Source: Thunnus maccoyii (taxonomy: Eukaryota > Chordata > Actinopteri > Scombriformes > Scombridae). Taken from it: a stretch of DNA of 64,000 bases. Location of the stretch: assembly GCF_910596095.1 (NCBI RefSeq), contig NC_056548.1, forward strand, positions 10,441,151-10,505,150, given 5' to 3'. Shown here piece by piece: positions 19,059 to 63,862 of the stretch (position 1 is the stretch's first letter; every line of letters begins with the position of its first letter). The translations under genes and the position numbers were made by a program. The notes under the pieces are model-generated. The model was not told the DNA's origin. It saw nothing but the letters and a program-made list of their open reading frames with translations, and did not search any database.

Positions 19059-19059
19059 T

Positions 19060-19390: not shown

Positions 19391-19499
19391 ATTCATTTTC
19401 AATGACTTAATAGTGTGCATACAAATTGTGTTTTTACTTTTAAAAATCTGAGTTATTATAACATACTATATACAAGACTGATCACAAATTAAAGGAAAA

Positions 19500-20037: not shown

Positions 20038-21053
20038 CTGTCTGTATATTCAATATTCTTAAACATTCCCTCCAGTTGCATTTTAAGACATAAAAAAACC
20101 CTCTGCTTGGAATAATAAACTGTGTCTCTGATATTGTTTTTCATCAAAAAATATCTTGTTTACATCTAGTCTTTCTCCTTCATTAAAAATTCCAGAGTCT
20201 ATGAATATGCAAATATTGTTCATTACAAAAGTTTAACAGCTGGACACAAGATGTCTCCTATTTCTACTCCTACTGAAAAGTCCATTCTCAGTGTATGTGC
20301 ACTGTATGTTCTATACTGCACCACGATTGGCTTTCAACCTAGTTGTGATGTCTCAAATCATTCTTGTATTTCAGCAGATAAATGTGAAAACAGCCTTCTA
20401 GTGTCAAACTCTGCACACACATCATTATGCACAGTGATGGCCAGACATCCAACTAAAGGAACAAGAAGAAAAACATATTTTTGACTGGAGGAGGTCTTCA
20501 AACACTGTAAATCCATACAACCCACTTTCCCAATACTGTACATATAAATTGGATTAAGGGTTGGATTAACCTCTTGTGTGGGCCGCAGGGAAAAAAATTA
20601 GCTGCAGGCACCTATTGACATCCGACACCACCAGCATCATGTGATGCTGTGCATTGTGTATGCATAAATTAATTCTACAGATTTATACAGTATAGGGATA
20701 TGCACTATGAGAGCACAGAACAATCTTAGATAACGGTATTAAAAATGGCTTGTGACACAGACCTGAGTAAATCTGGGCCTCAAAATTAAGTATTGATGCA
20801 AATGCACCTGATTAAAGGCCCATATTTCAACATTGGTTGATATTCTTATTCAGTGGTAACAAATTTGCAATTAATCAAATTACCAGAAACAATCAATAGA
20901 GAGAATCTGGGACTTGTGGGGGTCGTGAAGGTCTATGGACCCCAACAGTTGCCCACTTTACCTGGTAATCCAGTTTTAAAGCCAATTTAAGTTTAAAAGA
21001 GAGTGAGAGACAGAGAAATCTGGTTACAAGAGATGCAATAGGAAGGTGATATT

Positions 21054-21056
<3 letters not shown>

Positions 21057-21111
<55 letters not shown>
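21057..21111. repeat. (AC)n microsatellite
   Basis: About 55 bp of AC dinucleotides. Confidence 0.95.
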
Positions 21112-21112
<1 letters not shown>

Positions 21113-21370
21113 GTAAGGGACATTTTTATGGTGCATTTGTCAGGTCATTATATACAGTCTGTAAAGCTCTTTTCATGCAAAACAAGGAAATTGAGTTGTC
21201 TTTTTGCTTTGTTTGATTATTTCCACTTTGCTTTCATTCATTCCCTCCCACTGTCTGTCTCTCTCGCACACACACACTTGAAAATACACTCTGGGATGAC
21301 ACGCAGTGATCAAAGGGGACAGTGCTGGTGGTTTAATGGATGTCACGCATGCTCAGACATCATGATTAGT

Positions 21371-21401
21371 TCCCCCCTCCTCTCTCTTTCTCTCTCCCCC
21401 C

Positions 21402-21433
<32 letters not shown>

Positions 21434-21434
21434 G
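21371..21434. repeat. (CT)n-rich tract upstream of the slc35g2 promoter exon
   Basis: CT-rich sequence ending in an 11-unit run of CT. Such tracts are common just upstream of CpG promoters. Confidence 0.8.
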
Positions 21435-21439
21435 GTGAA

Positions 21440-21754
21440 GCTGAGGAGGAGCATCTGTATCAGTGCTCAGAGAGTGATGAACGAGCCGCAGGTCGCCATA
21501 AAACACACGTTTTCCTCCCGCAGAGCCGAGTGAGGTGATCGCAGGTGTCGGGTCTGGCAGGGCGGAGGCGCGCCGCGGTGCCCTTGAGGAGACTGCCGCA
21601 GAAGAAAGAGGAGTGGAGCGGGTAGAAGAAGAATAAGCAGGGGAACAAATGGACAAGAAGAGGTGATGGAGCGTCGGGGATGCTCAGTAAATGACTGAGG
21701 CTGACCGAGAGTGAAGTTCAACCCGGCGGGATCCGCTGGTTTGCGGGAAAGCAG
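21440..21754 (+). other. slc35g2: Putative slc35g2 promoter and untranslated first exon
   Basis: This CpG- and GC-rich block ends in GGGAAAGCAG|gtgagcgg, a strong plus-strand donor (last exon base 21754). The next plus-strand acceptor that fits is ...ccctttcag|GTGTCTG with exon start 25325, 26 bp before the slc35g2 start codon. A 3.57-kb first intron is therefore likely. Three short upstream ORFs lie in the block (21477-21533, 21649-21666 and 21666-21698), the last two overlapping by one base. The transcription start is not defined by the sequence. The exon assignment is inference. Confidence 0.5.
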
Positions 21755-22237
21755 GTGAGCGGAGGGCGGAGGCGGCTTTTTCTGACGACTGTGGTAGACT
21801 ATAAATTACCCACTTGGTGGTTTATTGATTAGAGCACATTGTACAATAACACGAAATTACACCACGTCACTAATTGGGGAACAGTCTGAAGACTCAGTCG
21901 GGGTTCATTGATTGAGCTGTTTTGTGCCAATCCGCGGGCGCATGCAGCGTCTGAGCGAGCGCGCGCTTGTCTCCATTCAAGAATTCGTCATGGGTCATGG
22001 GTCGGGCTATCAGTAGCCTATAAGATACAACATACATGGGTTAGACACATGCAGTTTGGTGGACGCTGAACAAAACCTCACAGTGTGTCTGGAGCGGGAA
22101 TCGAACCGTCATCTTTGCGTCTTGCGTGAGCCGCACAGTGATGGAACAAGCGAGGTTGGGATGTTTTATGATGTTAAATGAGTATTTTAATTGAATGTGA
22201 ACGCGAACCACAGCCCTTCCGTTTTTTCCATGTGTGT

Positions 22238-22238
<1 letters not shown>

Positions 22239-22320
<82 letters not shown>
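22239..22320. repeat. (GT)n microsatellite
   Basis: About 80 bp of GT dinucleotides within the putative slc35g2 first intron. Confidence 0.95.
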
Positions 22321-22322
<2 letters not shown>

Positions 22323-22430
22323 AGTGTGTGTTCAACCCTCTGGCGTCACAGGGGCGCATCACTGAGGAACCTAGATAACCTTGAGAATAACATCTCCCTC
22401 ATCACATAGGCCACAGACACACACCCACTT

Positions 22431-22482
22431 ACACAAACAGGGATACACAAACACACACACACACTCACACACACACACACAT
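22431..22482. repeat. Interrupted (CA)n tract
   Basis: CA dinucleotides with several interruptions, about 50 bp, complementary to the nearby (GT)n run at 22239-22320. Confidence 0.8.
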
Positions 22483-22891
22483 TTCCACAATAACCACCAA
22501 GCAAACTCTTACACTGGCATGATTTTACCAGTTTTTTCCCAACTTCAAGATACAACAGGTACTGTGCACTGTGAAGCTCGCATCAGTCCTACTCTGAATA
22601 TATAAAGAGAAGGAGTATCATTCATAAAAGTGACTGGTCTGTTACTCTCAATATTCCATATTAAAGATGGTATCGATTTTAAAAGGGATGTAAGACTTTC
22701 ATCAATAGAAATATAGCAGGTGATGCACATAAATGACATAACCAGGAAGACATTTCTTCTGCCAGATTTCATCAGAAGAGCATACTGTCCATGAGAGCGT
22801 CGTCTGCTGTCGTCCCCACATTGTGCAGGTCTGGTGTCGGCTCACTTTAAGGTTGTAAAGGTGTGAAATGGGCTTTTTAGAGCAGCTGTAA

Positions 22892-22894
<3 letters not shown>

Positions 22895-22924
<30 letters not shown>
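22895..22924 (+). repeat. (CAG)10 trinucleotide repeat
   Basis: Ten uninterrupted CAG units in the putative slc35g2 first intron. No credible coding frame covers them. Confidence 0.95.
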
Positions 22925-22927
<3 letters not shown>

Positions 22928-23902
22928 TGCAGAGGCAAGCAGCATCATCCAGATGAGTAAATTTTACTGACTGAGAAGGGAAGAATCAGAGATGAACATC
23001 CTGATCTCTTCTTGCTCTTTGTGTGTTCATATAGAGCAGCAGATCGGGTTGCATCCAACCACCAGTGAGAGAGAATGACTCGATCTTCTCAAATGTCATC
23101 AGAGCGATCTCAAGCCTGTGGCTATTTTTATGCTTCATTCAGCGAGCTGTGAAGTTGTGAAATCATAAAGTCGTAGTTTATCATTCAATTTCTGATCCCT
23201 GATTCAGCATTTTAATACAATTCTTTAAGTCAGTGTGATTTTTAGAAGGGATGTCATTCAGGGTGTAGAATATCCCCCAAAACCTCTATATTCAGGTTTT
23301 CACATGTTATGATAATTTAGATCTTTTATGAGCACTTTACCATTAACCAGGGAGAAACACACAGCTGAGAAAAAGCACACACAGCAATGACCTCCCCAGG
23401 TGTTGTAATTTGTAACATGGCAATCCAGGCTGTTAGGTGGGAACAGTCCACATCTCCAGAGAGAACAAAGGCCACGTAGCCAGACACAAACCAAATTCAT
23501 AACCTCACCCCGCTCCTACCAAATCAAAGGGACTGCACCATTTACGATGTGAAAAACAGCAGTGAGCTGCCAAAACGTCGGACTTTTACCTGCTGCAGTC
23601 ACACACCATTCATCTAGACCTTTAAACTACTCGGTGAAATAGAACAAAACTGCAGCCATGTTTTTCATAATCTGACACATCTGGAGTGACATGTTGGGTA
23701 ATGTGATGATATATACCATGAGATAACTGTAAGGTATATTTTAGGCAGTCAATGCACAGGACTGACTGACAATATTGGATTTTTCTATGATTTTTGCATC
23801 AATGTGATGGTGTACTATGATTTGTCAGGTGTTTAATTTGCTGGATTATCTAAAAACATACCTCCCTGTCTGGTGATTTTATCCATAAATTGTTAGTTGA
23901 TT

Positions 23903-23956
23903 TGAAATTTTATGACATCACGATATATATGAATATCGTGATGTCATAACATTTCA
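23903..23956. repeat. Near-perfect hairpin / inverted repeat
   Basis: Positions 23911-23926 (tatgacatcacgatat) and 23933-23948 (atatcgtgatgtcata) are exact reverse complements around a 6-nt spacer. With one mismatch the arms extend outward to 23903 and 23956. A 'gattttatccata' word also occurs on both sides (about 23874 and 23983). It may be a tiny palindromic MITE. Confidence 0.75.
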
Positions 23957-25350
23957 TTTACATCTTAAATTCTTTGATTGAAGATTTTATCCATATCATC
24001 TTCTCATAATATTTGTCATGTTTTTAAGTGTGTTCCCTGTTCTTGTGTTTTTATTATCACACATTTTGTGATTTTAAGAGTAATTGTTTCTCAGCTTGAC
24101 TATGAGATTGAGTGGTTACACTCACTTTTTGTTGTGTGACATCCAGTGTTAGGTAGTTTTCAGTTCATTGTAAACTTTAAAATGTGATTTTTTGATATAT
24201 TTAAATGCACAAAATCCCATTTTGCCTTTGAGTGTTTTGTCTTGTCTTACGTTTTTTGCATGCTTGAATCTCACTCCGTATCTGTTCGTTCAAAATATGG
24301 ATTTCTTCTGAAGTCAAGGAGGCAAAAAATGTTGAGCTGCTGACTGTTACTGTTGAGCAATTCCTCACAACTCCAGGGAAATAACTGAGCAGCATTCTCC
24401 CTCTGCCTTTTACCTGTATGAACATTATGTCACGTGAAAGTACTCCCCATTCGCTGAGAAACCAGTGGACTGCTTAGTGTTTTACAACCTGAGATGCAGC
24501 AGCGGCTGTGTCCCTTATAGCACCTGCACAGCCGTACTGTTCTGCTGCAGAGAGCCATTACTACTTTGGTTTCAAGTCAGTCATCCGTGGAGCAGGACCT
24601 TGAGGAGAAAAGTTAAAGAGATGAGTAAATCAGCTGAAATGAGAAAGGGAGCTGTTTGACAGGAATATTATGGAGGTATAAGAGGGGAGAGATGGTAGAT
24701 TCTGGTACCTGTTATTTATGTAAAGGCTGACATATATCATATTTTGACAGACTGACAAATAACAGAACAGATGTACAGAACATTTATATTTATTCTTTTG
24801 ACTGCTTGAATGTTTAAAGTGAGGGAGGGGTTAAGAGGGAGACAGAGACGGAGGAAAGAAAAAAAAATGTTCGAGACAGACAGAGATGAAAGACAAATGA
24901 GGCAGGAAGCACTTGCTTATGTAACTGTCATTGCCAACAATTTCCACCCCCCCCCTCCCATCAAGGTCATGTTATCCAAGGAGACTAAAAGGCGTGATAA
25001 TAGTGTTGCTAATCTGCCATCATGGTTATATTTCTGCTAATGTGGATTTAATTTGAACTCTCACGACACAGAAATAACAATTAAACTGGTGACTGTTCAG
25101 ACGGGCGAAGCTTACGTATAGGTACATTCCCTGCCAAACTCACGGGGCACATGGGGAGATGTGAGTCACTGCTATTATTATCTCGCATAGGCTATTAAAG
25201 ATATATGAGATAAGAAGCGGCATCCTAGAGAGAGGGACAGCGTGAGGGAGAAAGAGGAAGAGAGAGCGTGTGTAAAATATATATTGTATGTGGCTCTAAA
25301 AGTGTCCTTTCTCTTCCCTTTCAGGTGTCTGTCTTCTTTGAACTTTTACA

Positions 25351-26712
25351 ATGGAGTCCACTCACCTCCTGGGAGGCTCTAAGAAAAGAGTAAAGATCCA
25401 CCCTCACACTGTCACAGCCAAATACGCCACGCACACCCCCTACTCCCCTCAACCTGGAGTGCACACACACTTCCCCCAACCCGGGGACGATGGCTACGAT
25501 GATGCTCCGTCTTTCGAGGACTTTGGCTCCTTCCTGGAGGAGACGTCAGACAGGAAACAGCTGACGGAGAGCAAGAGGTGGCCTCTGACTCTGTTTGGCT
25601 CCAGAGACAAAGACAAGGACACGACCCACAAACCCCAAGCTGCCGGAGGAGGGGAGGGGAGCGAAGGTGGAGCTAAAGCAGCAAAGGGGTCTGGGAAAGG
25701 GGTGGGGGAACAGCTGGCCAGTTTCGGGGAGGCTTCTGTGTCTGCGTCTCGGCTCACCTGGGTGGGGCTGCTCGGGGCGGCGCTGTCTCACGGCTGTTTG
25801 ATCGTTCTGACACGTGTGGCTTCTGAGCGCTTCAGCCTCGGCCCCCTGTTTCTGCTCTTGGTTCGGTCCATCGTCCAGCTCTTATCTGTGGCTGTACCAC
25901 TGCAGAAGGGGGAGAACCCTTTCGGACCAAAAGGCTATCGTCTACGTCTACTCGGTTATGGCATTGCCTACTCTCTCTCCCTCTGCTGCGCCTACTCATC
26001 CTTAACCTTCGTCTCCCCTGGAAATGCCACGACAACCTGGCGCCTGGCAACCACGGCGCTGTCGGCGACTCTGGCTTTCCTGCTCCTGGAGGAGAGGCTG
26101 GGATTGGCTGATGGCATCACCATAGCTGCAGGGCTGTGCGGTTTGGGGCTTGTGTTGCTTCCCACAGCAGATGAGAACAATACAGGTTCATCAACTGACC
26201 CGGTTGCATTCTGGAGGGGTGCGTTCGGATGGTCTCTTTCAGCGCTGGCGGGGCTGTGGATGGCTCTGGCGCTGGTTGGATATCGCTCCCTGAAGGAGAG
26301 AGTGGGAGTTGGCACGGCTCTCTTCACAGTAAGCTGGACGGGCTGCCTGCTGGCCCCAGCCTCCTTGGCCCTGCTCCAGGAGGGCTGGTCCTGGCCTACG
26401 AGTACCACAGCCTGGGGTCTAGTCCTGGGCCTGGTTGCCTGCTCAATTGCAGCCTTCTTGGGGATGACGCATGCCCTCACCCGACTCCACCCGGCTCTGG
26501 TCTCCGCCTCTCAGAGCCTGGAGGTACCTGTTGCCCTGCTTCTGTATCTAACCGTGCTGCCATTGGCTCCCACTGCCCCTGAGGTTGTCGGAAATGTGAT
26601 GGTCATACTGAGCGTTGGCTGGCTGGTGGCAATGAAGCTGCTGCCCTCTCGCGGGGTTGGGCGCCACCAAAGGGAGGAGTACGAGGAGATTCTGGACTCA
26701 CCCATCAAATAG
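25351..26712 (+). CDS. slc35g2: Solute carrier family 35 member G2 (SLC35G2/TMEM22), complete
   Basis: A single-exon frame of 453 codons starts at ATG 25351, 26 bp after a plus-strand splice acceptor. The N-terminal ~130 residues are hydrophilic. They include KKRVKIHPHTVTAKY, a PQPGDDGYDD box and a Gly/Lys-rich stretch absent from the 412-residue human protein. From about residue 135 the chain is strongly hydrophobic, with the roughly ten membrane segments of two EamA (drug/metabolite transporter) repeats. Family blocks include GPKGYRLRL, AFLLLEERLGLAD and HPALVSASQSLEVPVA. The C-terminus EEILDSPIK is the signature of human SLC35G2 (QEILDSPIK). The protein is a multi-pass membrane protein whose substrate is not established. 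The coding region is much more GC-rich than its surroundings. Confidence 0.93.
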   Translation: MESTHLLGGSKKRVKIHPHTVTAKYATHTPYSPQPGVHTHFPQPGDDGYDDAPSFEDFGSFLEETSDRKQLTESKRWPLTLFGSRDKDKDTTHKPQAAGGGEGSEGGAKAAKGSGKGVGEQLASFGEASVSASRLTWVGLLGAALSHGCLIVLTRVASERFSLGPLFLLLVRSIVQLLSVAVPLQKGENPFGPKGYRLRLLGYGIAYSLSLCCAYSSLTFVSPGNATTTWRLATTALSATLAFLLLEERLGLADGITIAAGLCGLGLVLLPTADENNTGSSTDPVAFWRGAFGWSLSALAGLWMALALVGYRSLKERVGVGTALFTVSWTGCLLAPASLALLQEGWSWPTSTTAWGLVLGLVACSIAAFLGMTHALTRLHPALVSASQSLEVPVALLLYLTVLPLAPTAPEVVGNVMVILSVGWLVAMKLLPSRGVGRHQREEYEEILDSPIK

Positions 26713-26900
26713 ACACCTCCTCTCTCCTACTCACACTTCCCCTCTCTCTCACCCCACTCTCTCCTCTATGAGATTTGTTTCTGTTGTACATAAGAGACTG
26801 CTAAATGTTTATTGGAGCTTTATCTATTTTGTATTGTCCTCTTTGCTTTTGGGAAAGTGCCGATATTGTGTTGTCTGTTATCATGACCATGTGATGTGAC

Positions 26901-26906
26901 ATTAAA
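26901..26906 (+). terminator. slc35g2: slc35g2 polyadenylation signal candidate (ATTAAA)
   Basis: ATTAAA lies 189 bp after the slc35g2 stop codon and is the first good poly(A) hexamer on this strand. Confidence 0.55.
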
Positions 26907-26929
26907 ATCTGAGTGATGAACAAACTCCT

Positions 26930-28700
26930 GAAGTCAGTTGTAATCAAGTTCTCGCCTTCTTAAGAGAGTGTGCGTGTGTATATTGGCTATGCTTCACAAG
27001 AGTGTAATGTCAGTCACTTCGACCAGCCAGCTGAAGGTTGGCCAAGGATTGATGCCATCTATTTGGCTGCTGGCTGCTGGCTGCTGGCGAGAGAGAGAAA
27101 AAACAGGAGATGGGAGGCAAGGGAGAGCAGAGAGAGCAGGACAGAGCGAGACACACAATCAGAGGAAGATAAATAGGGAGAGAGAGAGAGAGAAGATGAT
27201 GGGGTTGGCATACAAATAACAAGCAGGGGGGAAAGGAGAGTGACGGCAGATGACGACAGCAGAGATGAAAGGGAAGGAGCGGAACGAAAAGAAGCCAGGG
27301 CAGAAAGGGAGGCTGGTTATTGAAATGTGTCTGGCCAGCTGGCTGATAAAACCCTGCTTTGTGTGCAGGAACAGTCATTATGTCTAATAAGCACCTGTCA
27401 GACACACAAGCACTGTCACTCTTCTTTTCTGTTATACTCATCATTAGCCTCCTGCTTCCCTTTTTTCCCCGCCTTGTCTGTTTTCCTCTCTTGCAAGGCC
27501 TTATAAATCAATGAAGTGCCAACATGAGATGACATGACAAAGCTTCCAATCACTGAAATCCCCACACCCGCCGCACAGATGGAGATGTTCAATTGAAACA
27601 AGTGTCCCTGCATTGAATAGACCAGTGTGTGTATGTGTGTGGAGACTGTGGTGAAACAGGTGTAATGAGAAATCTATGAGATAGAACTACTGTTGTTCTT
27701 CGTGCTCTACACTCATCTGCATCGTGTTAGTTGTGTCATTTACAGAAATACATGTAGACCTTAAAAAAAACCTTCAGATCTTGCCTGCAATTTTCCACCC
27801 AGCTGCGGATTTATAAAGAAAGGTGCATGCACACACACATACAAGGGCATGGGCACAAGCATGCATTCATGCCATGGTTGTAAACCTTTCATTAGTGAAT
27901 ATGTTCATGTGATGTCAGTGCGCTGGCCTAATTAAAATCACAAGACCATACCTTGTTTTCTATACTTCTCTCTGACAGTCTACTTTTTTTCTACACTCTT
28001 GTTTGCCCAATTTCTTCATCAGCTCTAATAAAAGTCTAAACAAAAGCATTAATATGTTAAAAATAAATGAAGAGGCAATCTGGGACAACAACATTACAAC
28101 CCATCACAGTGAAACTATAACACATGAAAGTACCTCCAGCCAACACTGGCCATTCCATGTGGTTTATAACAATGAATGTGTGTGTGTAAGCGACGGGCAG
28201 CTGAGTAATAGGCCTGGCAGAGATTCATGAATCATAAACATTCAAAGTGTTGTAAGTCATGGCCTCTTTGCATACAGACACTCTTAAAGCAGCTAATGAG
28301 TGGGAGAGGCCTGCCCAGAATTAAATACAACCCAAAACCTCTGACACACTTTCCTGCGGTCGTCCACATTTGCAGAAATCACCACAGCTACACAAATATC
28401 AAGGTGGCGTAGACTCTAGCGCACACTGGAACACATAAAAATCACAAGACTGTAGGCATATACATGAACATAAGCATGCAGCACTGAAAATGAGTTGATT
28501 AGTGTGTGTGGGAAGAGGGAGGAAACCTTTCCATGAGGCTAATTTGGTTGTTTAATTAGTTTTTATTCATTACAGTAAACCCACAACTTTTATGGTACAT
28601 TTAAAGTCATTGTCACCAGACAAAATCAACCTCACATATAAAAAACAACATCAAAAAATGAATATGTGCAAAAGCATTATCACTGGAGAGCTCCCAGTCA
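26930..28700. other. Intergenic stretch between slc35g2 and the ptx3-like gene
   Basis: Purine-rich (GA) sequence at about 27080-27290 is followed by AT-rich DNA. I looked here on the minus strand for a pentraxin-domain exon (about 200 codons with the HxCxxW motif) and found no such frame. Confidence 0.6.
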
Positions 28701-28721
28701 ATCTTTCATTATTCTTTCCCC

Positions 28722-30270
28722 TCATGTGTCTCCTCTGTCCTTCCTCAGTGTTCCTGCCTGCTCTATCACATTGCTCAGCTGCAGGTGAACCTTCTGCAGC
28801 TCTGTTGCTATGGAGACCAGGGCCCTTCCCATTGTGGCCATGTCCAGTGGTGAAGTCACTTCCTGCTCCTTCAGGCCAGATGGCAACGGCTTCACACCCA
28901 AGCCAGAAGCTGTCCCCAAACCTCCAGGTCTTGGTGTTGGCTCATGTCCCATCCCCGGAAAGCTGTCCGCTGCTGCCGATGGCGCCACTCTGTAAATGCT
29001 ATCTTCCTCCAGCAGCGTCAGCCGGGCATTCTCCTCGTGACTGTTGTGCAGGAGCATCTGCAAGGTAGAGTTTAACCTCCTCTCTCTCTCTGCTCCCTCC
29101 TCCCTGAGCTCCTGCAAGCCTCGCTGCAGCCTGAGACTCGCCTGCTCTGTTTGCCTCTGGCATGCTGACTCCATGCTGGGTAGACACTGTTGGCATGTCC
29201 CTCTAACCAGTTTGTCCATCTGCGCCCTGAGAGAGACCATTCCTCCACAGCGCTGCTCGAGAGACTCTAGCAGCATGTTCTGCCTCATGTGGGAGTCCTC
29301 CAGAGCGATGAAAAGCTTGTCCCAGCGGGAGAAATCTGCAGTCTGGCATGGTGTAGTTGGAGACTCCCCTGCAGACAAAAACCAGAGGGATGCATCAACA
29401 GCACAGTCCCATAGACAACTGAAAGATTATTAACATTGACATAAACCAAACATAACCAAAATATTAACATTTATTCGATTTAATCCTTTATTTGAACAGG
29501 TATTCTCATTGAGATCAAGGTGTCTCTTTCACAAGACTAAACACACACAGTACTAGTGTAGACAAACACAGAAATTTACATACACAATATGGTTTCACAG
29601 AATGGGAAAGATTTATAAGTATGTCTTAATCTTCAGAAGAAATGAGGGATTTTTCTTTTGAAACACTTTGTAACTCATTCCATTTGTAAAAATAATTATA
29701 AACAGTTGTCCCTTTCTCTGTTTGAACATGCTGTATGAGTCAAAATGCCCTGTGTCCTGAAATTATAATTACTGTATTTTGATGTGCTTAGACAGCAGTT
29801 TCCCAAGAAGCGCTTTACAGATAGATAATTGACAGGAAAACTCCCCTTAGTTGGCTAAAGATTGTATCATATGAATAAAAATGCGGATTGGCAGAGATGT
29901 GGATTGGAGGATATATAAAATGAATAGAAGTGGACCGAGAATAGAACCCTGTGGAACACCTTTCCTCACCTTACAAAACTAATAAACCAATTTGTGTGGA
30001 AGAAAAAAACACTTTATTTGGCAATGGTTTAATGAAATCTGCCATGGCAACTGAGGACAAATTCTACACAATGAGCCATCTGTTCTAACAAGCACGAACC
30101 AAAAGTGACAAAAGGATAAATAAGCAAAACATACCCTCCTGCTGATCCTGAGAGATCTCGTTGTCATAGTTGTCTTGGTAGTTCCCTTCATACTCAACCT
30201 GATTCACACACAAGGATGCACCCACGTAGCAGAGCACACACAGGACACGCCAGATCCTGAACACACACAT
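28722..30270 (-). CDS. ptx3: PTX3-like long pentraxin, N-terminal domain only
   Basis: There are two coding exons, 30135-30270 (signal peptide MCVFRIWRVLCVLCYVGASL plus an acidic Asp/Glu/Asn-rich stretch) and 28722-29368, joined in phase with GT-AG ends. Together they give 260 residues. The core SRWDKLFIALEDSHMRQNML closely matches human PTX3 (SEWDKLFIMLENSQMRERML), and several Cys and a coiled-coil-like helical region follow. In PTX3 this domain drives oligomerisation of a secreted pattern-recognition protein. A third exon should encode the ~200-residue pentraxin domain. Here exon 2 runs into a TGA after ...RKDRGDT with no good donor near the stop, and no pentraxin exon is visible on the minus strand down to position 1. 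It is either a truncated gene or a degraded duplicate. Confidence 0.75.
29369..30134 (-). other. Intron of the ptx3-like gene carrying a repeat
   Basis: The intron begins gtatgttt after 30135 and ends ...tgtctgcag before 29368. Most of it (about 29478-29965) is interspersed repeat. Confidence 0.7.
29478..29965. mobile_element. LINE-like interspersed repeat fragment
   Basis: It contains 'cctttatttgaacaggtattctcattgagatcaagg', a common fish repeat 3' end of the type 'tttattt..accaggta..tcattgagatcaaga', and farther on 'agaaccctgtggaacacc'. No intact frame is present and the boundaries are approximate. Confidence 0.45.
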
Positions 30271-30398
30271 GATGGAGCTCTGAAATGTTGAAGTGTGTTG
30301 GTTCCTTAAGATGTTAGAGAGCTGCTCTCTCTTTCCTTATCCACCCCCTTCACTATATGTAAAGCTCTCCACACTGAGCCAACTGTTGCGGGTGCTCA

Positions 30399-30405
30399 CT
30401 TATAA
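30399..30405 (-). promoter_or_regulatory. TATA-like box of the ptx3-like gene
   Basis: The minus strand reads cagTTTATAAGtg, about 130 bp upstream of the ptx3-like ATG. A TATA promoter fits an inducible secreted protein. The transcription start is not known. Confidence 0.35.
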
Positions 30406-30852
30406 ACTGTGCTAGAAGGAAGAAGGAGGGAGGAAGTTAGGGAGGGTGGGACAGAGGTGGGGGTGCTGTGGACGTTGGTTGAGTAATGCTTCAGTGGAGG
30501 TAATATGTCAAAAGTCAAACTGAGTGGGAAATAGGGGCATTATGGGGAGAGAAGGAGAGTTACAGGGGTAATGGGAAAGCTGGGGTGAAAAGAAAGCAAT
30601 GAAGGCAGGGTGGAAAGCAGAAGAGAAGAGAAAGATGGAGAAATAAAGACATTCAGGGTGGAACAGTGAACCATTTAAATGTGTGTAGGTTTACAGATAG
30701 GAACACGTATACCAAACCACGTATACCAAAATTTTCCCTCTTCTTATCAACTCTCACATTGACTCACTGTCAAATTCACGTACTATACACTGGAATCATT
30801 CTGGGAATGTTTTCTCTGGCTGTGAGATTGCCAACTTGGTCACATAATCCCG

Positions 30853-31099
30853 ATATGATTGAAAGCTCCAGAACAGCTACTAAATGGACCTTTAGGTGAG
30901 ATTGTTTTGCTGTTTCTAAGGTCAATGAACTCTGAAGCTCAACTTTTAAGCCGACGTGAATGAAAAGTTCCAGTTTGAACATCTACAATTCTGGCCATTC
31001 TACAAACTGGGCAAACTCAATCTGCTGATGAAGGTCATGCGATATGATCAAATGTTCTAGAACAGCTACTAAATGGACCTTGAGGTGAGATTGTTTTGT
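30853..31099 (+). repeat. Two copies of a ~189-bp repeat unit
   Basis: The text gatatgatt..., then 'agaacagctactaaatgg' and 'aggtgagattgttttg' occurs at 30853-30910 and again at 31042-31099. The offset is 189 bp. This looks like the junction between adjacent units of a tandem array trimmed to little more than one unit. Confidence 0.7.
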
Positions 31100-33379
31100 T
31101 TGTACTACATATCATTAAATAATTGAGTATTAAAATTGCCCACTGCCTGACTTGTACTTTCATTTTTAAGATAACACTGCATAATTTTTTTGAATTTGAA
31201 ATTTGAATTTTCTCTTCTTAAAAAACATTTTTCGTTATCAGTGACCAGATGTTCAGTCCAAACTGATATTATTCCCTCATCGCAAGATGCATAATATTGT
31301 TGTGCCTCATTCCAGAGTCATTTACAGTCATACTCGCATTGCATTGTTTCCACAGGACATCTCAGTCCACACACACAGGTCTGTCTGCCTCTTTAACCTT
31401 TTTACTGATGAGTCAGTCACTCTGTGCTCTGTGTCAACACAAAATCCCCTAACCTAAAGAAGAAGTTGCAACATTTGAGAATCTGGATTATGTTTTAAGC
31501 TTACAATGAGTATTGAGGGAGAAAAACATATACTGTTGCTAAGGAAAGGTTTGTGCAAAACATTTTGTACCTGGAGATTCCACACTGTGTGCTGTACTCC
31601 TTTCTTTATCTTTTTTCTGTGGAAGGGAGGCCTCCACACAGCTGCACCTATGTGCCCCTCTTTGTGCCCTTGGTGTCTTTGTACTTCATGTCTAATATGT
31701 ACTTCCATCCTGTTTCCCTAAGTTTTTTGCTAACCATGTAACTGACCAAATAAAGGTAAGAAAGACATTATTTGAAATGCTATTGGTAACCTGAGGGGCG
31801 TAGAAATACTATATAATCTATATATACTATATACTATACCTTGCCAATCCTGTGTTGGTTGGAAATTTGCGACATATCTCTGATGGTGATACAATTTTCT
31901 GCAGGCCTGTGTTTACTGCCTCTGTTTCCTGCAAGATGCAGAAGGATGATGATCAAATTCACTGTTTTATCTATGAAGTATGTATTAACCAAATTTTGTT
32001 GCTAAGTAACACTGCAAAATTGGCTTTCTGGCTGTGTGATTATATTTTGTTGCCTGGTGACACTGTCGATTAAACATTCAGTGAGGATGAATTATACTCA
32101 GCAAGGCCAAATGACCTTATTCTTCCAGGCAGAGGGCTCTGGTCAACAGGTGTTGGGGTTAAGCAGCAGAAGTAGGACATGTCAAGGTCATAGGAAAAGC
32201 TGTGACCTCTCTGCTCCCAACAGACCTCCAGACTGAGCTCCCTCTGCAGACGTCAGCAAGTCTGCCAGTCAGCATGTCGGATTTTCTCAGGCTGTAATGG
32301 GACTATTTGTGGTGGGGGGGCTGGACGTGGGTGGTGGCAGGTTTATATCAGGAAAAGAGAGAACCTGCAGAGGAAGAGATGGACAGACAGAGAGGTGAGG
32401 GGGGTATGGAGGGTCAGGTGATATTTGTAGAATTTGTATTTTCCTCACTGCAGCAAAAATGCCTCCCTGCGTGGCTTGTGTATGTGCATTTCTCTGTCCC
32501 AGTTCCATAAAATGCAAGTAATTAGGATCCCTCCAGCAAAGCAATACATTTGTATGTTTTTATGTTGGAACTTGCAGGTGGGGTGTAAAATTCTGTGTAT
32601 GCATACAAGTTATAAACTTGTCTTCATTGGTGCCCATCTGATGCATTTCCTCCTCTCCTCTCTATATATCATCTTTCTATTTTGGTCATCATATGACTCC
32701 ATAACAGGGGAGCGACATTTATCAGCAGCCGCCAGACGCTGTTTACCACCCCCACCTGCACACACCACACCTACAGTTTAGCTGTCACACAAATCACTTC
32801 CAGCTGGCAGTGAGGGGAGGAGTGGCGAGAGATGAAGGTAATAAGAAAACTCGACAAACATAAAAGGGAAGATGGAAAGGGAAAGACAGAGATAGAGATG
32901 ATGAAAGTAACTTTAGTGTCTTAGCACTCATTTTATTCCAAAAGAGAGAAAGGAGCAGGGATTTTTGTGGGGCTGGTTGTGATAAAACCAGAGATGCAAG
33001 GGAAAATGGGATGATGGGTGTTGTCAGCAGAAAAAAAAAAATCAGGCTAAAAACAGTCAGTTTAAAACAGCAACAGGACTTTACTAATGAACAAACCGCA
33101 TAAAAACAGTAACACAGTAAAGTCGGCCAACACAAGCCAGTTTATGAGAACTGTGTGGTGTTCTTGGGTGTTTCCCTTTTTTGTCCTGAATATGTAGAGA
33201 GGAGGGGAGAAGACCATTTGTTTTAAATACAGCATACTGTCAAACAATAGAGCCATTGTACAAATATAGCAGACTTATAATTATATCTAATCACTTCAAA
33301 AGGAGTGTATTAGTTGATGATTATGGTATAGCTTAATGCCTTTCTAAGAACAGTGTAGTGAGAGGCACAGTTAAGATTC

Positions 33380-34000
33380 ATAATAATTGATATCTCAGCA
33401 AAGCAAAGCCTTTAATACTGTGGATTATGCCCTGAGAAAGCAAAGGTTGCTTAATATGGGTTACATTATTTTATTATTGCTTAATCTAAGGTTAAAGCCT
33501 GATCAGCCAGTAGGCCGATTTAAGTCAAGTCAACTTTATTTATATATAGCACATTTCATACGACAGGCGTGAACTCAATGTGCTTAAAAACAAAAGCAAA
33601 AAACCTCCAAAAAGGTAAAGTTCATACATGACAAAAACATTACATTAACATTACATATATAAAACATATAAAATAAAACATAAAATAAGGAGATGTTACA
33701 TATATAAAAACAAATAAGACAACATATGAAATTAGACGGTTTAGTAATTATCTCTCAGGTAGAACTCAGTGTGTCAAAGAACATACTTCAGTATGATTAT
33801 TAATGGAGTGCCTCAAGGTTCTGTGCTTGTCCCACTTTTATTTTCACTTTACGCAAATAATTTAGGTGTTATTACGCATTGAACTAATAGCATTCTTTAT
33901 GCAGATGATACTGTTTCTCTTCTCTCCCAAACGTACTTCATAAACTACAGTCGACCTATGATATTTTTCATTCTCCCTCATTTAACCCAAACTTGTACTG
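33380..34000 (+). pseudogene. Dead LINE reverse transcriptase fragment
   Basis: Reverse-transcriptase motifs appear in order. SKAFNTVD lies near 33402, RFSNYLSGRTQCV near 33737, NGVPQGSVLVPLLFSLYA near 33803 and the catalytic box LYADDT near 33898. Between them are stop codons and a frame break, and a repeat at about 33515-33735 interrupts the first part. No endonuclease domain is seen. It resembles non-LTR elements of the jockey/Rex type, but the family is not determined. Confidence 0.8.
33515..33735. mobile_element. Repeat inserted into the LINE fragment
   Basis: The insert begins 'aagtcaagtcaactttatttatatatagcac', the head of a common teleost repeat with the word 'tttatttatatagcac'. It then runs into AT-rich sequence before the reverse-transcriptase frame resumes. 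The insertion is younger than the LINE copy. No clear target duplication is seen. Confidence 0.55.
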
Positions 34001-37000
34001 ACTGCAGATAAAGTTGTTTTCTAATGCTAAGAAGAAGACATTAGGGTAGACAGCTCAGGGGAGGACAATAGAAGTTATCTGTTAGAAATATCAAGGTAAT
34101 TAGCTTTATTTTCCATAAACCACATGTTGAAACCTTGTGATGAAACTGAGACCGAAGTTAGAATTTTAGTCCTGTTTCTCTTGTGAAGCTGGGAGAAAGC
34201 TGGTGGCAGCCACCTATTTACCGGTTCTTCATTGTAGTGATTTGCTGTATATAAATGAATCAGCACAGTGTCCCCACATGCTGGACTATGCTTATCATAA
34301 AACCCTCATAAATCATTGTGCCTTATATTCCAGAGTTGGCTGGCCATGTCTGTTGAATAGTGTATTTTTTCATTTATAAAGTCAGTCTGGGCAATTTACA
34401 TTAACATCATATCTCTGCAAATGTAATTCACAGTTCATCTTCCAATCATTATCTCAGATCACAAGACATACAGTATATCTGCTGTCTGTCTCTAATGTAC
34501 AGATGGCAAAGAAAGCCTTCATGATTACTTAGAATAGTCTGCAAGGAAGAAATTTCAATTGATAAATCTGATGTTTCTGGCAGAATTCAAGACTCCAACA
34601 CTATTAAATGCCACAATTCTTAACTGTCAATTTGTATCTTACTATAAGCCATATTTTAGTATTATTATCTGTTTTAGTACTGTTATCTGATTTTGTATGG
34701 TTTTGTCTGAAACATTTTATGTCGCTGTCCTGGCCAGATCTCTCTTGCAAAATAGGTTTCCAATCTCATAAATACTTACCTGGTTATATATAAGTTAAAT
34801 AAACAGCAAATAAAATAATTGCACCTAAATATAGAAGTATTATCTGTCTGTGCCCCATCAGGAAAAAGCAGTGCCAAATATAATTAGAAACATCCCAATT
34901 CCCTTGATATGCCTCTATAACTCACTCATCTCAATGAGACATGCAAAACATCATTTCAGCTTTCCCTTCCTTCCTGTATAACACAGGAGCCTCATGTGAA
35001 GAGACTAGCGAGAGAGCTGCTGCAGACAGAGTACACACCGAAAACGATAAAAAAAATAAATCGGAAAGGTAGCAGGGATTTTGCTGTTTCAGTAAACAGT
35101 GTGGTGGAAGGGCTAACATGAGCAGTCAGGGACAGATTGAGGAGAATCTATTCTTGTTTGGCTGAGTCATAGGAAAAATGGCAGCAATGTATCACTATTT
35201 AATTTGTCTTTAAGCACTAACTGCACCTCCTGTGAGGCCCCCTAAAATGTAGAGCTGATACAGTGGTGTGATATAAGCGTTAATGATGTTATTTAACCAC
35301 GGGCCTCCTGACTGTACTCAGATCGATATCACACAACCTCCGCTTAATCGATCTGATCTATTTGAACAGCTCCAGGCAGGAAGGAGTGACAAAGCAGGAA
35401 CAATATGCAGGAGAAACACACTTTTTATCAGTGTTTCAACATGTGTGCATATGCTGAGGAGTTGTGTTAAGTGTCATACACCACCAGACTTCATTATCTT
35501 GTTATGTGGTTAGTATAATTAGTAGTACTGCAATCAGTGAGGCAAACAAAGCTTAACAACAAGTTGCAGCGTGTCAAGATGGTTGTATTGAGAGGAGAAA
35601 TATTACTAGACTTGGCCCGGAGAACCCGATCAAGACCTCAACCTGGATATCCTTGTGTGTCTGTGTGTGAGCAAATCTAGGTCAGGAGGTCCGGTTGGTG
35701 AATGAGTGAATGACGAGCAGCAGATCCTCATGAGTAAATAACAGAAAACACCTCAACTGGAGGACAAAGATAGAATCCACACTCGATTTGGAAGTTACGT
35801 CACCGTTTGCATATTTATTTCCACATTTTCAGATGAATCACGTGAAACCACCAACCTCACAATGACTCATGTGACTGGATTACGTCTGCATGTACGTGCA
35901 GTTTATAACGGGCAGTGGAGCGAATGTGAATACTATCCAAACACACACACATCTTTACATATTGGGACAAAAGCTTGGGCTGGTGGACGATTACATCAGT
36001 AGGCCAAAGCTAAATTAATGTGTGTGTGTTTCCATACAGGGTCCCAAGAGTGGACTCACACCACAGTAGATCTGGGCTGCCTTTACAAAGAAAATGAACA
36101 ACATCTGGATGTGGAAACTTCTACCCATTTCACCCAGTGGGGGCTTTAAGGGGGTAAAAGTGAGTATGTGATTTGAGTGGGTGTGTTTAAGGGTGCTAGA
36201 TATATAAAGGGAAACACCCAGAGTGTGTATGAGGAAGCATATGGTCATATGTAACATCAAGCATAAAGGTCCTGTTCAGTCTCAGGTGTGCTGTCACTTC
36301 TCTGGGCCCCCCAACACCAAAACACACACTTTAATGACACTGTGTTTTTAATATGGAAAATGACCTCAACTTGTAGAAACACGAGTCAAGAGGTGGCGGA
36401 GTCACATACATATACACACACACACACACACACTTCTCCTTATAGGTGTCACAGGTTTGGGTGAAGACAGACATATAGCCCATACGTGGACACAAACATC
36501 CATGAACACACACAGACATTTATGTGTTTACACCAACAAATACACACACGTGGACTTGGCACAAAGCTTGATTAGTTCTCTAAATGTAAAAATAAAGATT
36601 TAGTTTCATAGATACCAACTGAAAACAACTCTGCACAGTCATTTGCAGCAGATATAACAGTCAGACAGGCCTCATCTTACAGCCTGAGGCCGACAAATAT
36701 TATATCTACTGCAACAAGAGGGGACAGTCATTATTTCCATACAACATGAATAAAATATGTTAATGGCTAGAGGCTAAAATGATTGTGGCACTATATCACG
36801 TTTAGAAAAATAACCACTTTTACGACAACTTCACATCATCTTCCCTATGGGATCAATTAAATCTTTTTTTTTTTTAACCATACCACATGTATTAATAATT
36901 GTATATCTGTACCTTTCTGTTACAGTCTGTAATCTCGGATCTACGATGTCACAATTACCACTGGTCTAAAACAGCTGAAGCTCCATTCATAGTATATTGC

Positions 37001-37048
37001 AGCTGACGTGTTTGGCCTGATGTCACATCATCCACCGGACGTTAGATT

Positions 37049-39707
37049 CTACTGCACCACATCCTGACTGCCTGTTGATGACTCCTGAGTGTCTTCTCCG
37101 TTAATGGAGGGCAGCTCGCTCTGGATTTCATTAGCCGTTTGGGGCTCAGAAGCGACGTCATTGGTTGTCACGGTCTCGGGAGCTACTGCATTTGCTGTCT
37201 GAGACTCGCTTCCGCTGAGTTGTGAAGGTGGGGGAGTCGTTGCTGTTGTCACACTACCTGCGCCGTTGGTTATTGCAGCTGTCTCACTGAGTGTCAGTGT
37301 CTGGCTTGAAGCAGGAGGCTCAGCGGCCACTGTGGTGGTCCTGCTGGGTGCTGAGAGCTGAATTGTTGAGTGACTGTCTGAATCTGATGTACAGACATGA
37401 TCGAATGCTTGGTTGGTTTGGCTGTCAGTGGGGAAGGTGTTGTTGTTATTGTTGTTATTTGTCTGGTCAGATGGCCGTGTGGTCACGGAGGAATCTGTTG
37501 TTGCTTTCACAGTTCCGGGTGGTGGATTTGCTGTCCATGAGTCTTGGTCGAAGTCTGGAAGTTGGTGGATGAGTACGGGAATTGGAGTGACCTGATTTAA
37601 CCCCACAGGCTCATCGGCTACATGGTTGCTTGTTGATGGCTGATTGACTGCATTAGTAATTGCTGACTGCCAGTTATTGGAGCAGAGGACAGCTGGAATG
37701 CTGCAAGGGGAAACAAAATCATGAGTATGTCATTGAGACCAGATGTCCTGAGTTTTTTCCTACAAATTAGGGTCCGACATAACCGATGTTGGACCCTCTC
37801 CTTTTCATTCATTCATTACAGTTCAACTCCACGTCGGACAGGTGGCTCGCAGAAGCAGACAGAAGGAGCTTGGAGTGAACACGTGCACACAAACAAATGC
37901 CAATATGTTCTTTCTCTCACTGTTCTATCTTGACAAGTACATTTCTGCAGATCTCTCAGCATTGTCTCAGTTCTTGCTGTACTCAGTACTCGCTGAAATG
38001 TTATAATCACAGAGTGTGTTTACATCATTGCGAGTATCCCCGTTTTGAGTCTTATCCTGGTTTTGACCATATTTTGGACGTGGCGTTTACATGGAACATA
38101 AGAAACCGGGTTTTTAATGTCCCTGTTTCTATGACTCTAACAGTATCCAGGTTTCTGATGATCTGTGTCCAGTTGTGTCTTTATTCCTCAACATCTCAAC
38201 TGCTCATTTCTCTACCAATAAAGAATGTTCAGTAACCTGGATAAGAGGTTTATATGCAACGGTATTGTTTCTATTGGAGTACTCCAGGTAGCATGTCAAG
38301 GTTTCTCAAACCAGGACAAGGGCTAATCCAGGTTTCTGATACCAGGATAAAGTGTTTACATGTGCTACGCAAAATCGGGATACTCCAAAAACCTGATCAT
38401 AACCAGGATACTCGTGCGCATGTAAAAACACTCATAAATTCTGCTCTCTTCTCCCTATGTATTGCATACTCTTTGGCTTTACAGAAAATATGGAGAAACC
38501 TACATTTATACACCATACACCTAATTTTATATTTTGCAAATTTGTGTAATATATCAACATTACATATCCATAAATAAAGGAAAACAACCAAATCTAAACT
38601 TTATTGTTGTATGTATTATGTATACAATAAATAAATCACCTAAATTATGGGGGAAAAAAAAAGATTTATTTTCATTTTATGGCTGCTGGGCCAGTGAAAA
38701 TATACAAGGGGCCAGTAAAACTCTGATCGACTGGCCAAGTGGGCCAGTGGGGAAAAAATGCTACATTGGACACTGCAAGTACATCTCTTGTGGTTAAGTT
38801 GGGCATCTTCTTGCTAACAGAGATCTTTTGCCATTTGGGTTACAGATTCAAATAAAAAACACAGTGGATTGGAATACATTTTTAACTGTTTTTTGGCTTC
38901 TGGATTTACAAGAGACCTTTCTGTTTAAAACCGTTTTTAAATAATTTTTCCTCTTTCCTGAGCAAACAAGTAAAAACCCTGTGACCTTGATGAAAGCTCA
39001 TTAAAAGTGCATTTGGTAGTGCTGCCTGAAAAAGTTAAAACATCCATTTTCAATTAGATCAAAAAACTGAAGGCATAAAAAATTTAAACCCAGACCCATT
39101 ACCAAATAGCATAAAGAAGCAACGGGAGACTTCCATGCTTTATTTTAGCTCTATAAAGATTTTGTCTTTTGATGTTATAAAGCAGACTATACAGACCTGG
39201 CCAGCTGTTTCTGAAGCTCCTGTGCATGTTGGTTGCACTGGGCAAAGTAACAGGCCTGAGCCTCCACAAAGTCAGTCAGGCTCCGCATGTGGTTGGTCTG
39301 ATAAAAAAATAAATCATACAGAGTTTTGGCCCTAAATATTGAGCATTATAAAAAGCAGTAATAGCTACTCTAACAAAACATCAGAGACCAAAAAATAAAA
39401 ACACATAAATTATTGTTTTTAGCAGACTGATTGACAAACGACGGTATATAATTAATTGTGTTCATTTTCCAAACATTATCAAGTTTTGCTTTGACTGTGT
39501 GTATACAGCTCATGTTACAATAATTATAAAAAGAAAATGTTCCAGTACAATGATACACACGCTGTGAACAATATAACAGAATCTTTTTACTATCCAACTG
39601 TGTGTGTTTATACATACGTGAGTGTTGCTAATTCCTTCCAGAAGACGTCTTGTAATTTCTGACTGCCTATCGAACAAAGACTGGCAGATCCTCAGCTCTA
39701 TCTCTGC

Positions 39708-39782
<75 letters not shown>

Positions 39783-42411
39783 AGCAAACAGTCATCTTTA
39801 TGGTATTTTCTGAAAATGTTCCATTAGCAGAAACAAAATCCCGTTCCAAATCCCTGGAGTGCTTATCTAAATGAACCAAACAATCAAAACAAAGCTATTG
39901 TCTACACTAACAACAGAGTCATACTAAGTTTTATAACTTCTGACACTGTTAAAATAGGCTCCATGGGTGACCTTATGAGGAATAAAACATAAACATGAAC
40001 TCACCTGAGAGATTTCCTGAGCCCACATCTGATCGGAAGAAAGAGACAGAAGAGACTGACTTAGTGATAAACAAGAAGTGTTGAATTATGTCTGTCATTG
40101 TTCACAGCCCATCAGACAACCACTGACCTTTAACCATTTAACACGCAGGAAGCTGAACATGTAGGAGACATGAGCTATGTAGTCGTCTTCCAGCGGGTTT
40201 GCATTCAAGGACTGACAAAAAAACAGAAAAGAGCAGAAAAGTATGATGAGTAGATGAATATAGAAAAAAAGGATTTTGGTGTGTTTTAGCTTTGATCCAG
40301 GTCTGATTAATACTAAACACCGTCATTGTAACTCACTCTGGACTCTCGCTCGGCCTCGTGAGCTTTCCTCAGCCGGGTCTTGGCTATGTCCAAATCCAAA
40401 CGCTTATTCAGCAACATCCTGCGCTCATCCTATGAGCAAAGACACACATATTTGAAGAAAAAAAAAGGCTTAAGTATACAACTAATTTACTAACAAAAAA
40501 TGTGAATAAATGACAGAATAAAAATACACAAATCCAAAAAATAACATCATCAGTGCAACGAACATACAGACGTGTGTGTGTGTGTGTGTTACCTGCATGG
40601 CTTTGTATTCCCCCTCACTGAAACTCCGCAGAGGTGTGAGAAAGTGGATGTTAGCGCTTTGGACAAACTTTCTCTTTGCCTCGCCCACCTGCTTCTGAGC
40701 CTCTCCACACCTGAGCAGTGCAGTTCCTGAACCCAAAACAAACTTCAGTTTAAAAACAAGACAATATTTCAGCATGTCCATGTTAAAGACAAATAGCTTA
40801 CAAGACAGGTATGTGCAGATATTCCCCCCTTATTTTAGTGTGTATGTTTGTTATCTTTGAAGTTTTTATGGATGTGCGTGTAAAGTGTACTTCTTAGACC
40901 AACATTATCCATATCAATGTACACTCACCATAGGGTGTGTTGGACCCTATCTCCAATCCAGCCTGATACATTTGCTCTCCCAGCATCTCATGGTCATGAG
41001 GCCGAGGTGGGACACTCCAATCCAGGTATTCATACAGCCGGTCCTCTAACCGTGCTCCTACTCATCAGGGGCGAAAGAGCTTAATTTAGCTTCAAAAGGT
41101 TATCACTCATAAAACCAGGACAATACCACACAGTTTAACCTTGAGATGGTAGTTTGGAGTCAAAGCACGCCATTAACATTTTACTATACAAGGCTATTTA
41201 ACCTCCTTCATATCTGTAATATCCTACTAGGACATGTATGAAAACTAACATTCAATAAAATTAAAAAAGCCCTCGATTGTAAGAAGTCATAATCTTTAAA
41301 AACATCCTTGATGCTAACTGTAAGAGGTTATTATTTCTGGCAGCAGAATGGCCCCCCTTATATGATAGATTACAGACCACATCCACTCATGATTCCATTA
41401 GCTGAGGTAATTGGATTCAAACAGGCAAAATAATGACCGTTCCTTTTCATCCAACCAGACCAATTACAGTCAAAGCAAACTGAAGAAGAGACAAGGGATG
41501 TATTTGTTGTGGGAGGACAAATGAGAGCTGCAATATCGGGTCCCATAGGTAAAGACTGATAGCTATTATTCAGCGGCAATAATGATTATGGCTATTGGGA
41601 TATTGCTGAGAACAGGCTCTGGTTTGACGTAAATGTGAAGAATAAAAGGTACTCATGGAAACACGTTTGTCCAAATATTTATCTACCAACAGTGTGCAAG
41701 ACTACATGTGCATGTATCATATATAGGAAATGATAATCATATATATAAATGCTGGTTGTTGACTTCTCTCCAAGGTCAAGTATGGCAGATAAGTATCCAA
41801 AATAGACCTTTTCCCAATGTCTAGTGACAGGGGTGTATTAAAGTATGTAGGTCAGTGTAAGCATCAAACTGTATTTCTTCTGAATTTGTTGCACAATACA
41901 TCAACTAATTCTGACAAACACAGAATCAACATTTGTCTATGTTGAAATGAGACATTCAAAAGGAAGATATTTTAATGACAAGTCTCTTTTCAGGACCTAT
42001 AGACAACCGGTGAATGAATAAACAATTAACAGTCTCTCACCTGGGTTGGGCTGCAGGAAAACTTCAGTCTGAGAGATTATCTGGTCCGTCCAGGTCTTGG
42101 TTGCGTCTACCCGGCTGACGAGCTCCTCAAGAGTGGGTTCCAACTCTGTCCTGTCCGCCTGTCCAAGACTCTCCCCCGTGTACTGGAACGAAGATAAAGG
42201 ATGATATTAAAAGCTACAGCCACTTAAAAAACTAGTGATGTCATTAGGGTGTACATTCGCTAACCTACATTTCAGTGCTAAGCAGTTAACAGAGAATCCG
42301 ACATTAGCTAAACTCCAGTAAAAGCATTTATTTTTCGGATGGGTCCTCTTTTACCTGAACAGCCCGGTTGATGAACTGACCAGCATCCACAGCCAACCGC
42401 GTCAAATCCAT
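37049..42411 (-). CDS. Endophilin-B-like N-BAR protein lacking the SH3 domain
   Basis: Ten coding exons join in frame: 42355-42411, 42041-42182, 40929-41057, 40593-40726, 40337-40429, 40128-40211, 40005-40028, 39618-39707, 39197-39297 and 37049-37700 (501 codons). The start MDLTRLAVDAGQFINRAVQ matches the amphipathic helix of endophilin B1/B2. N-BAR blocks follow: QADRTELEPTLEELVSR, SQTEVFLQPNP, FLTPLRSFSEGEYK, LNKRLDLDIAKTRL and SEITRRLLEGISNTH. Such proteins bind and bend membranes at mitochondria, Golgi and autophagosomes. The family normally ends in an SH3 domain (human B1 is about 365 residues). Here residues 285-501 form a Ser/Thr/Pro/Asn-rich tail with an N7 run and no SH3. The gene is divergent from both B1 and B2, so I assign the family but not a paralogue. 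Confidence 0.85.
38012..38434. mobile_element. MITE with terminal inverted repeats in endophilin-like intron 9
   Basis: The left end (gagtgtgtttacatcattgcgagtatcc) and the reverse complement of the right end (tgagtgtttttacatgcgcacgagtatcc) align as imperfect inverted repeats. Internal words such as 'ccaggtttctgat' also recur. The ~420-bp element has no transposase frame. Confidence 0.65.
39711..39778. repeat. (CA)34 microsatellite abutting an exon 8 acceptor
   Basis: The 68-bp CA run begins one base past the TAG acceptor of endophilin-like exon 8 (minus strand). In the transcript the acceptor is therefore preceded by (UG)n in place of a polypyrimidine tract. Confidence 0.95.

Positions 42412-44002: not shown

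Positions 44003-63862
<19,860 letters not shown>

What the first reader, a model, noticed from the sequence alone, without database searches (positions are those of the whole stretch)
37049..42411. An endophilin B whose SH3 domain is replaced by a long Ser/Thr-rich tail
The ten exons give a well-conserved N-BAR domain, but the last exon encodes 217 residues of Ser/Thr/Pro/Asn-rich sequence with an N7 run and stops, with no ALYDY-type SH3. I found no SH3 exon farther down the minus strand to the next gene. SH3 is how endophilin B recruits partners, so this protein would shape membranes but recruit differently. The tail contains proline clusters (PPPG, PPPSQL) that might be SH3 ligands rather than an SH3.
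Basis: partly seen in the sequence, partly recalled or inferred. Interest (0 to 1): 0.7.

Follow-up and report, generated by a model that had tools for sequence, protein, structure and literature searches.

The report
Endophilin B relative without SH3 domain
A fish-like gene beside ATR encodes an intact membrane-bending endophilin B body, but no SH3 partner-binding domain could be found and a long, probably disordered tail stands in its place, so it may be a natural endophilin lacking the brake that the SH3 end gives its relatives.

Summary
Ten minus-strand exons (42411-37049), all nine introns GT-AG, join into 501 intact codons. Residues 14-284 are a BAR domain (Pfam 1.1e-53); the best PDB match is endophilin B1 (1.9e-87). 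No SH3 coding was found: Pfam on the minus strand 44018-17051 listed none, and an endophilin SH3 profile over all six frames of the window gave only chance-like hits. The last exon begins like the B1 linker, then runs on as 217 acidic, Ser/Thr/Pro/Ala/Asn/Gln-rich residues. The N-BAR is about equally far from B1 (55%) and recalled human B2 (52%), which are 70% alike, so it is probably a third, diverged paralogue.

Best reading: an N-BAR protein without the linker-SH3 restraint of B1, whose tail adds steric pressure. A regulatory heterodimer partner of B1/B2 is a close rival. No fish genome or RNA data could be searched, so orthologues, expression and alternative last exons remain untested. Verdict: new variant of a known kind, moderate interest.

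The parts
42355..42411 (-). exon 1: start codon and N-terminal amphipathic helix (H0-like), aa 1-19
   Evidence: aligned to B1
42041..42182 (-). exon 2, BAR
40929..41057 (-). exon 3, BAR, includes the region aligned to the B1 helix-1 insert area
40593..40726 (-). exon 4, BAR
40337..40429 (-). exon 5, BAR
40128..40211 (-). exon 6, 84 nt, in frame: insert absent from the B1 chain of 6up6 (B1 residues 189 and 191 flank it)
   Evidence: the Bif-1b/c microexons 6 and 7 also lie in the N-BAR (PMC5891588, passages)
40005..40028 (-). exon 7, 24-nt in-frame microexon, part of the same insert
39618..39707 (-). exon 8, BAR
39197..39297 (-). exon 9, end of BAR
37049..37700 (-). exon 10: about 18 residues alignable to the start of the B1 linker, then low-complexity tail to the stop; 217 residues in all
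   Evidence: (alignment to query residue 302)
36335..36352 (-). first AATAAA/ATTAAA signals after the stop (starts at 36352 and 36335), giving a 3' UTR of about 0.7 kb if used
   Evidence: use not tested

Best explanation
The gene encodes a diverged third endophilin-B-type N-BAR protein that has lost the SH3 domain. SHOWN: intact gene structure, intact BAR, no detectable SH3, and a last exon that starts at the linker and ends as a 217-residue acidic low-complexity tail. INFERRED: the dimeric N-BAR with its N-terminal helix still binds and bends membranes; without the SH3 it lacks the restraint that the linker-SH3 region puts on endophilin B1 and cannot recruit PxxP partners such as dynamin by the usual route; the tail acts as an entropic, negatively charged bristle on the convex side of the BAR coat that adds steric pressure towards high curvature or fission, or tunes assembly.
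For: 9 of 9 introns GT-AG and 501 intact codons; BAR 1.1e-53; endophilin B1 1.9e-87, with the alignment running 18 residues into exon 10. No SH3 by Pfam on minus 17051-44018. Tail D+E 23, K+R 3, 64.5% S/T/N/P/Q/A; composition scores lean to disorder (TOP-IDP 0.181 against 0.092 for the BAR; FoldIndex -0.04 against 0.026). Helical moment of the N-terminal 18 residues 0.38, B1 stretch 0.42. CpG-rich start (o/e 1.15 and 1.04 in 42800-42401). Truncating the linker-SH3 region of B1 gave more efficient liposome tubulation (PMC11799418, passages). BAR plus disordered region senses curvature better than N-BAR alone for amphiphysin (PMC6175956, passages); crowding of disordered regions on BAR scaffolds is reported to drive fission (PMC9704533, passages citing Snead et al.).
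Against: No transcript, orthologue or selection evidence. The tail GC3 (0.482) is lower than in the BAR exons (0.623). PMC11799418 also proposes that the linker itself mediates the intramolecular contacts and that the SH3 weakens them, so loss of the SH3 need not mean release. PMC9704533 reports crowding as weaker than helix insertion plus scaffolding in one assay. The tail is about half the length of the roughly 380-residue amphiphysin region.
Confidence: 0.5

Rival explanations
1. Regulatory partner: the protein pairs through its BAR with SH3GLB1/2 and makes dimers with one SH3 or none, diluting SH3-dependent recruitment. The tail is mainly a spacer.
For: Endophilins B1 and B2 form heterodimers in mitophagy (PMC4845016, title and start of abstract in listings). 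The BAR here is 55% (N part) and 62% (C part) identical to B1.
Against: No interaction data. The N-BAR is more diverged from B1 and B2 than they are from each other, which may weaken cross-dimers.
Confidence: 0.25
2. An SH3 form exists: the true main transcript uses another last exon that lies outside the window, is too diverged to see, or was lost from the assembly.
For: Exon 10 has three internal GT sites scoring above 3 (37592: 4.51, 37288: 3.70, 37258: 4.77) and one in the 3' UTR (36959) scores 5.29, equal to the weakest real donor. A family-out profile scores isolated halves of diverged SH3 domains at only 5.9 to 12.0 bits, close to noise, so a strongly diverged split SH3 could be missed.
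Against: The three internal donors score below all 9 real ones (5.29-12.49). No SH3 in minus 17051-44018 by Pfam. The top profile hits are 7.5 bits at 29854 (5 shuffles gave 5.0-7.1; it lies in intron 1 of the next gene) and 9.4 bits at 23138 (4 of 30 shuffles reach it). A PTX3-like gene on the same strand intervenes.
Confidence: 0.12
3. A decaying duplicate: the SH3 was lost by accident, and the exon 10 frame is A+C-rich sequence that happens to be open; the protein has little function.
For: Strand composition alone makes a 217-codon opening possible (41 of 20000). The tail is low in complexity (entropy 3.71 against 4.13 bits). The BAR is diverged from B1/B2. The next gene is also missing its usual C-terminal domain.
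Against: No stop, frameshift or broken splice site in ten exons; strong BAR score; CpG-rich start.
Confidence: 0.13

Closest known systems
Endophilin B1 / SH3GLB1 (Bif-1)
   Same: N-BAR with N-terminal helix, 55.4% (98 of 177) and 62.0% (49 of 79) identity in two stretches; linker start alignable; an in-frame insert in the N-BAR at exons 6-7, as in the Bif-1b/c microexons.
   Different: No SH3 found; the part after the BAR is 217 residues of low-complexity sequence.
Endophilin B2 / SH3GLB2
   Same: N-BAR 52.2% (95 of 182) and 59.1% (39 of 66) identical; B2 letters recalled, not from a call.
   Different: B2 has an SH3 (recalled); this protein is no closer to B2 than to B1.
Amphiphysin 1 (N-BAR, about 380-residue disordered region, SH3)
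   Same: Works-like comparison: N-BAR followed by a long disordered region that helps curvature sensing (PMC6175956, passages).
   Different: Amphiphysin keeps its SH3; its N-BAR is of another family; its disordered region is longer.
Laboratory endophilin B1 without SH3
   Same: Same architecture up to the linker; reported to change shape in solution and, with the linker-SH3 region cut, to tubulate better (PMC11799418, passages).
   Different: An engineered truncation without a long tail.

Membership tests
Endophilin B (SH3GLB) | BAR domain of endophilin B type | tested here: met
   PF03114 1.1e-53; endophilin B1 1.9e-87, next best endophilin A1 3.1e-17
Endophilin B (SH3GLB) | N-terminal amphipathic helix (H0) | tested here: inconclusive
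   Alignable from residue 3; moment 0.38 against 0.42; membrane insertion not tested
Endophilin B (SH3GLB) | C-terminal SH3 domain | tested here: not met
   Not in the 501-aa protein; not on minus 17051-44018; alternative transcripts not testable
Endophilin B (SH3GLB) | Orthology to SH3GLB1 or SH3GLB2 by tree and synteny | not testable with these tools
   No vertebrate genomes held; pairwise identities only; neighbours ATR, PTX3-like and SLC35G2-like
SH3 ligand protein | PxxP core with flanking basic residue | tested here: not met
   0 PxxP, 0 class I, 0 class II in 217 residues
Amphiphysin-like BAR plus disordered region (works like) | Long disordered region following the BAR | tested here: inconclusive

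The most novel reading that the evidence does not exclude
A third vertebrate endophilin B (an 'SH3GLB3'), kept next to ATR in at least one fish lineage, that exchanged its SH3 for a disordered tail and became a permanently unrestrained, self-sufficient curvature generator needing no dynamin-type partner: a natural counterpart of the delta-SH3 constructs used in the laboratory.
Probability: 0.25. Interest if true: 0.65.

Novelty: new variant of a known kind. Interest (0 to 1): 0.4.

Why it matters
The SH3 of endophilins is credited both with recruiting partners and, in B1, with restraining membrane remodelling. A natural SH3-less relative would let the two roles be separated in an animal, and would test whether a disordered tail can stand in for SH3-recruited fission machinery. 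The value depends on the gene being expressed and conserved, which could not be tested here.

Tried and rejected
SH3 remnants: the best hit of the mixed endophilin SH3 profile (KGSFPVNYLSV, 29848) scored 7.5 bits, slightly above all 5 shuffles (5.0-7.1). I rejected it because it lies in intron 1 of the PTX3-like gene, just after what reads like a reverse-transcriptase motif, and only 11 residues match. The best hit of the B-only profile (23138, 9.4 bits) is reached by 4 of 30 shuffles, and it lies beyond the next gene. Shuffles were of two-base blocks, not strict dinucleotide shuffles.

Tail motifs: no PxxP, DPF/DPW, FxDxF, WxxF, clathrin box, PPxY or NPF. One LIR-like core (FDHV, residue 384) was rejected because 56.8% of 5000 tail shuffles have at least one. 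Tail internal repeats: none beyond the N run; the only tandem repeats in exon 10 are the short arrays behind it, 37438-37459.

Relatives: genome contigs (23 stretches matched a pattern, 0 confirmed) and viral contigs (1 matched, 0 confirmed) hold none, as expected for a fish gene. Literature: no SH3-less natural endophilin B or fish third SH3GLB turned up (20 of 144 listed; 1 of 1; 3 of 3; 2 of 2), from titles and abstract starts. The one 'SH3GLB3' paper (PMC3234227) uses the name only for an antibody, in a passage that is about SH3GLB1. A zebrafish microexon paper (PMC12626424) has no mention of sh3glb or endophilin.

Full report
OBSERVATION. The minus strand at 42411-37049 holds ten exons with 9 of 9 introns GT-AG, joining into 1506 nt and 501 codons with one terminal stop. 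All five exons 5 to 9 start in phase 0. Exons 6 (84 nt) and 7 (24 nt) are in-frame and together encode an insert that the PDB endophilin B1 chain lacks: its residues 189 and 191 flank the gap in the two-part alignment. The Bif-1b/c microexons 6 and 7 lie in the N-BAR too (PMC5891588, passages), so the insert is an ordinary family feature, although exact exon homology was not tested.

BAR. Pfam BAR covers residues 14-284 at 1.1e-53. PDB search gives endophilin B1 at 1.9e-87 and endophilin A1 far behind at 3.1e-17. Identity to B1 is 98 of 177 (55.4%) before the insert and 49 of 79 (62.0%) after it; to recalled human B2 95 of 182 (52.2%) and 39 of 66 (59.1%); B1 to B2 127 of 181 (70.2%) and 52 of 77 (67.5%). 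The protein thus sits outside the B1-B2 pair, either as an old third paralogue or as a fast-evolving duplicate. Without an outgroup tree these cannot be told apart.

NO SH3. Three-frame read-through of the minus strand was scanned with Pfam in three stretches covering 17051-44018. The only listed families were BAR (the gene itself), a sub-threshold MRAP match (0.14) and a DDE_3 transposase (6.2e-07). Controls: the split BAR exons were found in the same way, and four isolated halves of endophilin B1 and A1 SH3 domains were recognised by Pfam at best E-values of 1.7e-06, 0.0021, 5e-09 and 7.1e-07 as short queries; in 3333-residue queries the weakest, the B1 second half, would be marginal. A home-made endophilin SH3 profile over six frames of the whole window gave a best score of 7.5 bits against 5.0-7.1 in 5 shuffles and 46.9-59.3 for half-domain spikes that were in its training set. 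In a harder test, with the family of the spike left out of training, half-domains scored only 5.9-12.0 bits, and the best B-only window hit (9.4) is matched by 4 of 30 shuffles. So an endophilin-like SH3 is absent from the window, while a very diverged, split SH3 exon is unlikely but not excluded.

TAIL. Exon 10 starts with residues alignable to the beginning of the B1 linker (alignment to query residue 302) and continues to a stop 217 residues in. Composition: T 15.2%, S 13.8%, P, A and N 9.2% each, Q 7.8%; D+E 23, K+R 3; five aromatic residues. Exon 10 is richer in GC than its 3' flank and A+C-rich. Its frame stays open far longer than flank-like DNA allows (0 of 20000), but with its own skewed composition 41 of 20000 random sequences are as long. 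Disorder scores lean the expected way but the margins are small.

ALTERNATIVE LAST EXONS. Three internal exon 10 GT sites score 3.70-4.77, below all nine real donors (5.29-12.49); one 3' UTR site scores 5.29. The first poly(A)-type signals follow about 0.7 kb after the stop. Without RNA data this cannot be closed.

SURROUNDINGS. Upstream on the same strand is ATR (N-HEAT_ATR 2.8e-113 for the ORF at 61382-62359; its C-terminal end near 44020 is read by eye). Downstream on the same strand is a two-exon PTX3-like gene (30270 to 28722, 260 aa, PTX3 4.3e-11) that itself has no pentraxin domain in minus 17051-37049. Then comes an EamA transporter (SLC35G2-like by recall) on the plus strand, 25342-26712.

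MECHANISM. In endophilin B1 the linker-SH3 region contacts the N-terminal helix in solution and its truncation gave more efficient liposome tubulation, although the same authors also propose that the linker makes the contacts and the SH3 weakens them (PMC11799418, passages). For amphiphysin, N-BAR plus disordered region outperforms N-BAR alone in curvature sensing (PMC6175956, passages), and crowding of disordered regions on BAR scaffolds is reported to drive fission, though crowding was the weaker effect in one comparison (PMC9704533, passages). From these I infer an unrestrained N-BAR with a steric tail, confidence 0.5. The main rival is a heterodimer partner of B1/B2 (0.25), given that B1-B2 heterodimers are known (PMC4845016, title and abstract start).

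LIMITS. Held collections are prokaryotic, viral or plasmid; scans found no relatives. The own-genome search did not complete.

VERDICT. A real, intact, SH3-less endophilin-B-type gene: new variant of a known kind. It is not filed as a full endophilin B member, because the SH3, a defining feature, was tested and not met. Interest 0.4.

Noticed in passing
window 28722-30270 (-): Two-exon PTX3-like gene (260 aa, signal-like start, PTX3 N-terminal homology 4.3e-11) that ends without a pentraxin domain; none found on minus 17051-37049. Two neighbouring genes thus both lack their family's C-terminal domain; why is unexplained.
   Followed up: partly
window 40005-40211 (-): Exons 6 (84 nt) and 7 (24 nt) look like in-frame cassette exons in the N-BAR, comparable to the brain-specific Bif-1b/c microexons.
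   Followed up: partly
window 17051-27049 (-), hit about 19.7-20.0 kb: DDE_3 (Tc1/mariner-type by recall) transposase fragment, 6.2e-07.
   Followed up: no
window about 29920-29970 (-): Stretch reading like a reverse-transcriptase motif (GVPQGSILGPLLFILYI) in intron 1 of the PTX3-like gene; read by eye.
   Followed up: no
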